Below are positions 35,107-37,786 of a DNA stretch of 64,000 nucleotides, piece after piece. Within the stretch, counting starts at the first letter, position 1; each line of letters opens with the position of its first letter. A program made the position numbers and the translations under genes. Location of the stretch: assembly GCF_008039875.1 (NCBI RefSeq), contig NZ_VRUU01000002.1, positions 124,001 through 188,000 of the forward strand, read 5' to 3'. Source of the DNA: Methylobacterium sp. WL119 (GTDB lineage: Bacteria > Pseudomonadota > Alphaproteobacteria > Rhizobiales > Beijerinckiaceae). The notes below the pieces were generated by a model. The model was given only the letters and a program-made list of their open reading frames with translations. It made no database searches and had not been told where the DNA came from.

Positions 35107-35808
35107 ATGCGGGTACTTCTGATCGAGGACGACGGCGCCACGGCGCAGAGCATCGAGTTGATGCTCAAGTCCGAGAACTTCAACACCTACACCACCGATC
35201 TCGGTGAGGAAGGAATCGATCTCGGCAAGCTCTACGATTACGACATCATCCTGCTCGATCTGAACCTGCCCGACATGTCGGGCTACGAAGTGCTTCGCAA
35301 CCTTCGCGTCGCCAAGGTCAAGACGCCGATCCTGATCCTGTCGGGCATGGCCGGCATTGAGGACAAGGTGAAGGGCCTCGGCTTCGGCGCCGACGACTAC
35401 CTCACCAAGCCGTTCCACAAGGACGAGCTCGTGGCCCGCATCCACGCGATCGTCCGCCGCTCGAAGGGCCACGCCCAGTCGGTGATCACCACCGCCGACC
35501 TGATCGTGAACCTCGACCAGAAGACCGTCGAGGTCGCCGGCTCCCGCGTCCACCTCACCGGCAAGGAGTACCAGATGCTGGAGCTCCTCTCGCTGCGGAA
35601 GGGCACGACGCTGACCAAGGAGATGTTCCTCAACCATCTCTACGGCGGCATGGACGAGCCCGAGCTGAAGATCATCGACGTGTTCATCTGCAAGCTGCGG
35701 AAGAAGCTCGCCAACGCCAGCCAGGGCAAGAACTACATCGAGACCGTCTGGGGCCGCGGCTACGTGCTGCGCGAGCCGATGGACGCCGAGGAGCGCATCG
35801 CCGTCTGA
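35107..35808 (+). CDS. ctrA: Cell-cycle response regulator CtrA
   Basis: 233-residue OmpR-class regulator, master controller of cell cycle, division and flagella in Alphaproteobacteria. The receiver domain begins [20 protein letters not shown], the phosphoacceptor is Asp51 ([16 protein letters not shown]), and the switch lysine is in [16 protein letters not shown]. The C-terminal DNA-binding domain contains [18 protein letters not shown] and the winged-helix [21 protein letters not shown] and GRGYVLREP. Length and residue numbering match Caulobacter CtrA (231 residues, Asp51). ATG 35107 follows CTGGGGA. A strong terminator lies downstream. Confidence 0.98.
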
Positions 35809-35838
35809 TCCTCGCCCGCCCCGGCTCTTCCCTCTACA

Positions 35839-35875
35839 GGCACCCGCGGATCGCTCCGCGGGTGCCTTCTTCGTT
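35839..35875 (+). terminator. Intrinsic terminator of ctrA
   Basis: A perfect 12-bp stem (35839-35850 with 35855-35866) with a TCGC loop is followed by a T-rich tail TTCTTCGTT. It starts 30 bases after the ctrA stop codon. Confidence 0.92.
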
Positions 35876-36014
35876 GCGGCGGCCGGTTTCGCCGCTCGGC
35901 CGGTCGACGGTCGCGCTTGTCTTCGGGCCCAACCAGGGATATCCATGCTGCCTGCGTCGCCGGCCCCGCACATCTCCGTGCGGTCCCGAGATCGGCGCCG
36001 AGGAGAGACGAGCC

Positions 36015-36110
36015 TTGGCCAGCGCCGGCTCAGCACCCGTCATCGTCGAGGCCGCGACCGCGGCGTCGCTGACGCGCGCCCTCCGCTCGCTTCTGCTTAC
36101 CCGCCCCTGA
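36015..36110 (+). CDS. Leucine-rich leader peptide of leuA (candidate attenuator peptide)
   Basis: A 31-codon open frame from TTG 36015, preceded by GAGGAGAG seven bases upstream, a strong ribosome site. The C-terminal end reads SLTRALRSLLLTRP and stop. Five leucines occur in the last 13 codons, three of them consecutive (CTT CTG CTT). CTT is a rare leucine codon in this GC-rich genome, as expected if ribosome stalling on leucine shortage is the signal. The stop codon lies at the base of the hairpin 36104-36144. The gene is 113 bases before leuA. This is inferred from pattern; no experimental support. Confidence 0.7.
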   Translation: MASAGSAPVIVEAATAASLTRALRSLLLTRP

Positions 36111-36144
36111 GGGCCGTCCGGGCGTTCGCCTGGGCCTTCAGGGG
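36104..36144 (+). promoter_or_regulatory. Candidate leucine attenuator hairpin
   Basis: A 12-bp stem with one G-U pair: CCCCTGAGGGCC (36104-36115) pairs with 36133-36144. The left arm includes the leader stop codon, so a ribosome stalled at the leucine run would leave it free to form, while termination at the stop would cover it. There is no T run downstream, so the mechanism may be translational or Rho-linked rather than classical. Confidence 0.5.
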
Positions 36145-36223
36145 ATCGCATGGCCGACCTCACAGGCTTCGAAGGCCGCCCGATCCGCTCGGCGGGGGCG
36201 CGCCGCGACAGGGTGGACAACCG

Positions 36224-37786
36224 ATGACCAGCGTTTCCGAGACGAAAAAAGACCGCGTCGTGATCTTCGACACGACGTTGCGCGACGGCGAGCAATGCCC
36301 GGGCGCGACCATGACCCTTGACGAGAAGCTCGCCGTCGCCGAGCTGCTCGACGCGATGGGCGTCGACGTCATCGAGGCCGGCTTCCCGATCGCCTCGAAC
36401 GGCGACTTCGAGGCCGTCTCGGAGATCGCCCGCCGCGCCAAGCGCGCCACCATCGCCGGGCTCGCCCGCGCCATCCCCGCCGACATCGCCCGGGCCGGCG
36501 AAGCGGTGCGGCACGCCCGCCAGGGGCGCATCCACACCTTCGTCTCGACCTCGCCGATTCATCTCGCGCACCAGATGCGCAAGACCGAGGACGAGGTCGT
36601 CGAGATCATCCTCAAGACGGTGGCGCAGGCCCGCGACCTCGTCGCCGACGTCGAGTGGTCGGCGATGGACGCGACCCGCACGCCGATCGACTACCTGTGC
36701 CGCTGCGTCGAGGCGGCGATCAAGGCCGGCGCGACGACGATCAACCTGCCCGACACCGTCGGCTACGCGACGCCGGGCGAGTACCGCGCGATGTTCGAGG
36801 CGGTGCGCGAGCGTGTGCCGAACGCCGACAAGGCGATCTTCTCGGTCCATTGCCACAACGATCTCGGCCTCGCGATCGCCAACACGTTGGCCGGCATCGA
36901 GGGCGGCGCGCGGCAGGTCGAGTGCACGATCAACGGCATCGGCGAGCGCGCGGGCAACGCGGCGCTTGAGGAGGTGGTGATGGCAATCCGCACCCGCTCC
37001 GACGTGCTGCCCTACGAGACCGGCATCGAATCGACGATGCTGACCCGGGCCTCGAAGCTCGTCAGCCACGCCACGAACTTCCCGGTACAATTCAACAAGG
37101 CAATCGTCGGCCGCAACGCCTTCGCGCACGAGAGCGGCATCCACCAGGACGGCATGCTCAAGCACGCCGAGACCTACGAGATCATGACCCCGGCCTCGGT
37201 CGGCCTCACCAAGACCAACCTGGTGATGGGCAAGCATTCCGGCCGCGCCGCCTTCCGCTCGAAGCTCGACGAGCTCGGATTGAGGCTGTCCGACAACCAG
37301 CTGCAGGACGTTTTCGAGCGGTTCAAGGCCTTGGCCGACCGCAAGAAGAACGTCTACGACGAGGACATCGAGGCGCTGGTCGACGAGAATCTCGCCACCG
37401 CGCACGACCGCATCCGCCTGGTCTCGCTCTCGGTCATCGCCGGCACGCGCGGGCCGCAGCGCGCGACCATGAAGGTCGCCGTCGACGGCAAGACGCTCAC
37501 CGAGGAGGCCGACGGCAACGGGCCGGTCGACGCGGTGTTCAACGCGATCCAGGCGCTGGTGCCGCACGAGGCGCAGCTCGAGCTCTACCAGGTCCACGCG
37601 GTTACCGCCGGCACGGATGCCCAGGCGGAGGTCTCGGTGCGGCTGAAGGCCGGCGAGCGCTCGATCACCGCACGCGGCGCCGACCCCGACACCCTCGTCG
37701 CCTCGGCCAAGGCCTACCTCTCGGCGCTGAACAAGCTCTCGGCCTCGGCCGTACGCCTCCACGCGCAGCACGCGGCGGCGGAGTAG
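36224..37786 (+). CDS. leuA: 2-Isopropylmalate synthase LeuA
   Basis: First committed enzyme of leucine synthesis, 520 residues. The catalytic TIM barrel has [20 protein letters not shown], the metal-binding [12 protein letters not shown], and [19 protein letters not shown]. The subdomain has [16 protein letters not shown], and the C-terminal regulatory LeuA dimerisation domain spans about 395-510 ([20 protein letters not shown]), site of leucine feedback. ATG 36224 sets the MTSVSE start. The leader peptide and hairpin upstream suggest leucine-controlled expression in addition to enzyme feedback. The gene is monocistronic as far as seen, followed by tRNA-Lys. Confidence 0.97.

What the first reader, a model, noticed from the sequence alone, without database searches (positions are those of the whole stretch)
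36015..36144. Leucine attenuation leader upstream of leuA
A 31-codon open frame with a strong ribosome site (GAGGAGAG, 7 bases) ends SLLLTRP-stop; three consecutive leucine codons (CTT CTG CTT), two being a codon rare in this genome, sit 3 codons before the stop. The stop codon lies within the left arm of a 12-bp hairpin 113 bases before leuA. Leucine attenuation is established for enterobacterial leu operons and has been proposed for Alphaproteobacteria; here it is inferred from layout. Unusual points are a TTG start and the lack of a T run after the hairpin.
Basis: partly seen in the sequence, partly recalled or inferred. Interest (0 to 1): 0.6.

Follow-up and report, generated by a model that had tools for sequence, protein, structure and literature searches.

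The report
Leucine-sensing leader upstream of leuA
A tiny leucine-rich reading frame and an RNA hairpin in front of a leucine-synthesis gene are kept across much of the Alphaproteobacteria, and comparison suggests that the leucine codons themselves pair with and hide the gene's ribosome-binding site until leucine runs short.

Summary
The TTG-started 31-codon frame (36015-36110) ends SLLLTRP-stop, its stop codon lies in the 5' arm of a 12-bp hairpin (36104-36144), and leuA starts at 36224. All 110 leuA loci first read (59 after thinning) keep a CTT leucine codon at position -4, followed by A, and a stop codon at the same place. A covariance model, searched genome-wide, hit 104 of 289 Alphaproteobacteria genomes; in 100 it lies upstream of leuA, eight of these upstream of a second, distantly related leuA type. 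The hairpin covaries, stop codon included, lacks a U tract and matches no Rfam family.

What changes is the mechanism. The leucine-codon run is complementary to the leuA ribosome-binding region of its own genome more than to that of other genomes (41 families, 0 of 20000 permutations; 45 further loci, 0 of 20000); most control segments show little. This favours translational control: a ribosome stalled on leucine codons would free the leuA start. It resembles the actinobacterial LEU element. The window's own copy shows the pairing only weakly, and there is no experiment. I rate it a new variant of a known kind.

The parts
35916..35943 (+). candidate promoter: CTTGTC (35916-35921) and GATATC (35938-35943)
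   Evidence: A similar CTTG..TA pair ends 152-172 bases before the hairpin in 19 of the first 40 loci, the window's own included; inferred, no start-site data; the sigma-70 consensus scan finds nothing here.
36000..36007 (+). Shine-Dalgarno site of the leader ORF, GAGGAGAG
   Evidence: similar sites before the TTG/GTG/ATG of the leader in relatives.
36015..36110 (+). leader peptide ORF, 31 codons, TTG start, ends SLLLTRP-stop
   Evidence: C-terminal leucine, proline and stop conserved in leuA loci.
36090..36103 (+). leucine codons CTT CTG CTT and the following ACCCG; regulatory codons and proposed pairing partner of the leuA ribosome-binding region (UUACCC 36097-36102 with GGGUGG 36211-36216)
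   Evidence: Codon -4 is CTT in 110 of 110 first-set loci, CTT 55 / CTA 7 in 62 class-wide loci; swap tests; within the genus, codon -3 ACC goes with AGGGT.
36104..36144 (+). hairpin whose 5' arm (36104-36115) holds the leader's stop codon (36108-36110); 3' arm 36133-36144; inner helix 36119-36123/36128-36132
   Evidence: Covariation; models R1 and R2 find it genome-wide.
36210..36216 (+). AGGGTGG, candidate Shine-Dalgarno of leuA, proposed to be masked
   Evidence: ACAGGGTA or ACAGGA at this place in many Methylobacterium loci.
36224..37786 (+). leuA, 2-isopropylmalate synthase
   Evidence: NCBIfam leuA_bact TIGR00973 over its cut-off; found in 97 of 99 genomes of the genus.

Best explanation
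A leucine-sensing leader that controls translation initiation of leuA. With leucine plentiful, the ribosome translates the leader quickly and releases at the stop codon inside the hairpin's 5' arm; the hairpin closes and the leucine-codon run (CUU CUN CUU A..) pairs with the leuA ribosome-binding region, so leuA is little translated. With little charged leucyl-tRNA, the ribosome stalls on the leucine codons, covers that run and the hairpin's 5' arm, and leaves the leuA start site free. The leucine codons thus do two jobs: they sense leucine and they act as anti-Shine-Dalgarno. Shown by comparison: the ORF, the codons, the hairpin with covariation, the genome-specific complementarity. Inferred: stalling, exposure, the direction of control, and that expression responds to leucine.
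For: Conservation and covariation (at the stop codon's second position the pair is G-C 73, A-U 9, G-U 6, unpaired 1). Genome-wide specificity to leuA. Simulated ribosome: with codon -8, -6 or -4 in the A site the cost of opening the leuA site falls by 2.3-2.4 kcal/mol (60 class loci), and by most, 1.85, at codon -4 in 54 first-set loci; with codons -24 to -14 the class means are -0.1 to 0.9. Within Methylobacterium, ACC at codon -3 goes with AGGGT (14 of 18) against 1 of 11 otherwise (relatedness not corrected).
Against: The window's own copy is a poor example: masking the leucine codons changes leuA accessibility by only +0.5 kcal/mol at codon -6 and about 0 at codon -4, and its leucine run pairs better with its own site than with 81% of 62 foreign ones, not all. 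A ribosome on the stop codon opens the site nearly as well in the simulation (1.8 class, 1.2 first set), so the model needs quick release there. Adjacent segments also score: leucine run x -46..-24 z -3.9, and leader -48..-24 x site z -2.3, though the latter is +0.1 in the hold-out. In 28 thinned first-set loci the test is weaker, z -2.0 to -3.4 by choice of segment. 56 of 147 genomes with this leuA have no model hit upstream. No experiment. PMC1262725 (passages read) reports that in Streptomyces coelicolor leuA leader mutations had some effect but not one of classical attenuation, and concludes that leucine-codon mutations do not influence regulation there.
Confidence: 0.7

Rival explanations
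1. Transcriptional attenuation: the hairpin, or Rho acting on the untranslated stretch after the leader's stop codon, ends transcription when leucine is plentiful; a stalled ribosome prevents it.
For: A long stable hairpin follows the leucine codons directly and a stalled ribosome would cover its 5' arm. Rho was not tested and cannot be judged from these results.
Against: No U tract in the great majority of loci. It does not explain why the leucine run matches the leuA ribosome-binding region of its own genome.
Confidence: 0.15
2. The nascent peptide itself arrests the ribosome at the stop codon in response to free leucine, in the manner of TnaC (comparison recalled).
For: The Pro-stop end is nearly constant (CCC before the stop in 110 of 110; 58 of 62).
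Against: In 4 of 62 loci the codon is CTC, Leu; in the 90-row alignment that C-to-U change has A opposite in 3 rows and G in 1, so pairing is kept. Residue -3 varies among I, T, S, R and -2 among R, C, S, G, and the N-terminal half is not visibly conserved outside the genus (by eye): base pairing explains the constancy at least as well as the peptide.
Confidence: 0.05
3. The leader serves ribosome re-initiation or mRNA stability without sensing leucine.
For: Leader genes have been proposed to raise translation by re-initiation (PMC4833913, start of abstract and one reference passage seen). In the window a second small ORF (36150-36227) overlaps the leuA start by ATGA.
Against: Leucine at codon -4 in 172 of 172 loci of both sets and attachment to two distantly related leuA types tie it to leucine. 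The second ORF is not conserved (a comparable one in 25 of 110).
Confidence: 0.1

Closest known systems
LEU element of Actinobacteria (PMC1262725)
   Same: Leader ORF with a leucine run upstream of leuA, and pairing of the leucine run with the leuA Shine-Dalgarno as base stem (paper's text, passages). Candidate leaders read here in Microbacterium and Nonomuraea have the string CTTCTTAGCTGCC at the end of the leucine run, as has the alphaproteobacterial locus L102.
   Different: Described only in Actinobacteria and with a pseudoknot; here one hairpin is supported, with the stop codon in its 5' arm, and the gene is mostly the other leuA type. The authors favoured a binding protein over stalling.
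Leucine attenuator of enterobacterial leuABCD (leuL; Rfam Leu_leader, name recalled)
   Same: Leucine codons in a short leader ORF upstream of leuA, and a hairpin (recalled for the enterobacterial one).
   Different: No U-tract terminator here and no Rfam match; a terminator/antiterminator pair was not seen.
Translational attenuation, as in erm/cat leaders (recalled)
   Same: A stalled leader ribosome would unmask the next gene's ribosome-binding site.
   Different: The signal is an amino acid sensed by its own codons, which are themselves the masking strand.
ilvIH / ilvBN attenuator of Caulobacter (PMC4117421, passages)
   Same: Branched-chain amino acid leader in Alphaproteobacteria.
   Different: Described there with a rho-independent terminator; another operon.

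Membership tests
LEU element (Actinobacteria) | upstream ORF with leucine run in front of leuA | tested here: met
LEU element (Actinobacteria) | base stem: leucine run pairs with leuA Shine-Dalgarno | tested here: met
   Met for the group: swap tests. Weak for the window's own copy.
LEU element (Actinobacteria) | conserved pseudoknot inside the base stem | not tested
   Only a simple two-helix hairpin was counted; the paper's figures are not held.
LEU element (Actinobacteria) | common descent (shared sequence) | tested here: inconclusive
   CTTCTTAGCTGCC shared with Microbacterium and Nonomuraea but CTTCTCGG in Nocardia, whose run also pairs weakly with its leuA site (-7.6 against -16.1 and -14.8 kcal/mol); three actinobacterial sequences only, no statistical test.
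Classical leucine transcription attenuator | leader ORF with leucine codons | tested here: met
Classical leucine transcription attenuator | terminator hairpin followed by U tract | tested here: not met
Classical leucine transcription attenuator | match to a described leader RNA family | tested here: not met
   Rfam 15: no match at the element in the window (E up to 5) or in 20 related loci (E up to 0.5).
Classical leucine transcription attenuator | expression falls with leucine, relieved by leucine-codon stalling | not testable with these tools
   No expression data.

The most novel reading that the evidence does not exclude
One ancient RNA switch, shared by Alphaproteobacteria and Actinobacteria, that has been carried on two distantly related leuA types: leucine codons that sense leucine and at the same time are the anti-Shine-Dalgarno of the gene they regulate, with an almost invariant CUUA whose role beyond pairing is unexplained.
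Probability: 0.35. Interest if true: 0.72.

Novelty: new variant of a known kind. Interest (0 to 1): 0.55.

Why it matters
If true, it gives much of a class of bacteria a concrete switch for leucine synthesis that works on translation and is not in Rfam, and it makes the long-ambiguous actinobacterial LEU element directly testable, because the class-wide comparison names the pairs to break and restore. A search for U-tract terminators would overlook it. The two covariance models could seed an Rfam family.

Tried and rejected
Second small ORF 36150-36227 ending ATGA on the leuA start as a translational coupler: rejected as a shared feature, only 25 of 110 loci have any such ORF and with differing starts. 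Terminator: no U tract. Frame fusion of leader and leuA, considered because of the CUU-A string: rejected, the distance to leuA varies in length and frame. TnaC-like peptide arrest: held unlikely because of the Pro to Leu changes that keep the hairpin pair. Whole-leader folding energy: not unusual. RNAalifold on 30 Methylobacterium leaders proposes a base stem between GUCGCGCGC of the leader and the stretch just before the leuA Shine-Dalgarno; plausible, but too conserved to test. I had no handle for an actinobacterial genome and so did not search that phylum with the models; named plasmid records were read instead. Literature: nine searches listed no paper whose title or abstract start describes an alphaproteobacterial leuA leader; three listings were capped (20 of 29, 20 of 26, 8 of 1197), and only passages of seven papers were looked at (and none beyond). 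Correction to that count: the papers are PMC1273637, PMC10117765, PMC2965389, PMC1262725, PMC4117421 and PMC4833913, six in all. Vitreschak 2004 is not held and Lopatovskaya 2010 was seen only as a citation, so an earlier prediction there cannot be excluded.

Rows dropped: of the 74 class hits, 62 entered the pairing tests; the window's own genome, L114, L115, L118, L124, L136, L139, L142, L151, L154 and L168 were left out by hand (same family as the window, or another member of a family already in), and L186 because it has no leuA. One search's family count covers 73 loci in 42 families; 41 had a usable row. L107 was left out of alignment A1. L001-L110 mix two collections and hold duplicate strains (for example L005/L031). 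In L005, L006 and L031 the automatic choice of leuA start probably picked a wrong upstream ATG. One search used 60 of the 62 class loci and every second suitable locus of the first set (54). The 45 hold-out loci share some families with the first set (for example f11 aside, f19 and f1), and there the run was anchored on CTTA where present.

Full report
What is there. leuA begins at 36224 and scores over the cut-off of NCBIfam leuA_bact. CTT makes up 52 of 1399 leucine codons in 37 long window ORFs. The upstream neighbour is a ctrA-type response-regulator gene (35107-35808; NCBIfam CtrA over its cut-off) followed by a terminator-like site (35838-35867), so the leader most likely belongs to leuA.

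Conservation. leuA was found in 97 of 99 genomes of the genus, of which 30 loci were given, and 80 loci came from genome contigs. In all these 110 loci (duplicate strains among them) a frame is open to the hairpin's stop codon; codon -4 is CTT in 110 of 110, the codon after it begins with A in 110 of 110, codon -1 is CCC in 110 of 110, the stop is TGA in 109 and TAG in 1. Codon -5 is leucine in 105 and codon -6 in 105. On 59 thinned sequences the hairpin has 7 of 17 pairs with double-sided changes.

Reach. Model R1, from those 59 sequences, was run over 289 whole genomes of the class: 74 have a hit, one place each. 71 of them lie upstream of a leuA of the window's type, 2 upstream of a distant one and 1 (L186) not. 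Model R2 (90 sequences) hits 104 of the 289 genomes. In 91 of these the hit lies upstream of the window's type of leuA on the same strand, at a median 74 bases from the match, out of 147 genomes with such a leuA at E 1e-120. One more is next to a leuA cut by the contig end (L140), and eight are upstream of the other leuA type: G306, G374, G108, G203, G154 and G223, G305, G373. That is 100 of 104; in the four others (L199, L204, L186, L214) no leuA lies in the stretch fetched. The second type scores over the cut-off of NCBIfam leuA_yeast TIGR00970 (L182) and is 25-30% identical to the window's LeuA. The hits in G203 and G154 are weak (E 0.002 and 0.006) and their hairpin differs. In the window's own genome the leuA copy is the only strong hit (E 9e-15; next 0.055). 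In 299 genomes of the phylum, 76 are hit; three hits lie outside the class, E 5e-4 or weaker, and no leuA is near them. That f144 is Rhizobiaceae is my guess. In two Rhizobiaceae plasmid records I saw leaders of the same kind, with CTTATCCGCGG or CTTAGCCGCGG, so the models may under-count. Rfam has no match at the element.

Structure. On 90 sequences (89 distinct) 91.5% of cells pair, against 79.3% after shuffling and 63% or less when slid; 147 cells change on both sides against 44 shuffled (the alignment was fitted to the model, which favours it). The stop codon changes together with its partner strand: its second position pairs G-C in 73 rows and A-U in 9, the stops being TGA 53, TAG 5, TAA 3 and one row TGG without a stop there among 62. 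So both the pairing and a stop at that place are kept.

Mechanism. There is no U tract. Looking at the leucine runs I noticed complementarity to the leuA ribosome-binding region and tested it by exchanging partners between genomes. Own pairs beat exchanged pairs: 62 class loci z -7.65; 48 thinned z -6.0; 28 thinned first-set loci z -2.0 to -3.4 by choice of segment; one locus per family, 41 families, z -6.05, GC-corrected -5.30, 0 of 20000. A hold-out of 45 loci that were not hits of the first class search, with the same segments, gives z -5.2 (GC-corrected -4.9), 0 of 20000; thinned to 40, z -4.9. It shares some families with the first set. Controls: other leader segments against the site z -1.3 to -1.8, -1.0 and -2.3, +0.1 and -0.9; leucine run against the start of leuA z -1.3, -1.2, -1.0. 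The stretch just before the ribosome-binding site also pairs with the run (z -4.1; -3.9), so the masked region is wider than the Shine-Dalgarno. Folding with a simulated ribosome opens the leuA site most when the ribosome stands on the leucine codons: 2.3-2.4 kcal/mol at codons -8 to -4 in 60 class loci, 1.85 at codon -4 in 54 first-set loci; a ribosome on the stop codon still gives 1.8 and 1.2. Within Methylobacterium the codon after the last leucine varies with the leuA Shine-Dalgarno: ACC with AGGGT in 14 of 18, other codons with AGGGT in 1 of 11 (29 of 39 distinct rows, 10 without a recognised site left out; relatedness not corrected).

Against. The window's own copy does not show the simulated opening and its pairing is only moderately better than with foreign sites. 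Its genus as a group does show it (26 loci, 2.4 kcal/mol at codon -4). Stalling, leucine response and direction are inferred. In Actinobacteria a similar element was described with a pseudoknot; there mutations in the S. coelicolor leuA leader are said to have some effect that did not fit classical attenuation, and the paper's conclusion says that leucine-codon mutations do not influence regulation (PMC1262725, passages read). If the latter holds for leuA it speaks against stalling, unless masking dominates.

Relation to known systems. It works like a translational attenuator. Its nearest described relative is the actinobacterial LEU element, whose base stem is the same idea; in three actinobacterial records read here candidate leader peptides are MQFGLLLLSCRDESSD, MLRGLLLSCRGGGL (one of several possible starts) and MQRALLLGRRDGV, two of them with CTTCTTAGCTGCC as in L102. 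Descent from one element is possible, not shown. It is not a classical leu attenuator, since the terminator test fails. Nine searches listed no paper on the alphaproteobacterial form (three listings capped), and two relevant papers are not available here.

Noticed in passing
window 36150-36227: A 25-codon ORF begins 5 bases after the hairpin (CAGGGGATCGC-ATG) and its stop overlaps the leuA start as ATGA. Not conserved: 25 of 110 loci have an ORF of similar end, with differing starts.
   Followed up: yes
L182, L183, L196-L198, L205, L213, L240, L241, L260: The same kind of leader precedes a second, distantly related leuA type in several alphaproteobacterial families; either the leader stayed when the gene was exchanged, or it moved with it, or it arose twice.
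   Followed up: partly
L203 (G504:C14:97500-108000), hit at 107280-107358: A CCCCTGAGCG...CGCTCAGGGG hairpin of the same look stands 46 bases before an ORF that looks like threonine dehydratase (by eye), in a genome where another hit precedes leuA; possible related leader for isoleucine synthesis, or chance.
   Followed up: no
L219 and L220 (Sinorhizobium, Rhizobium plasmid leuA): Rhizobiaceae leuA leaders keep CTTATCCGCGG / CTTAGCCGCGG but with a later stop; in L220 an 11-base stretch before the leader's leucines is complementary to the leuA start region.
   Followed up: partly
window 35107-35808: The cell-cycle response regulator gene ctrA (NCBIfam over cut-off) lies directly upstream, with a terminator-like site at 35838-35867.
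   Followed up: partly
leader codon -4 and next base, both sets: The string CUUA (CUA for CUU in 7 of 62) is nearly invariant although the next residue varies (T, S, I, R, M) and the pairing register with leuA differs between lineages; pairing alone may not explain it.
   Followed up: partly
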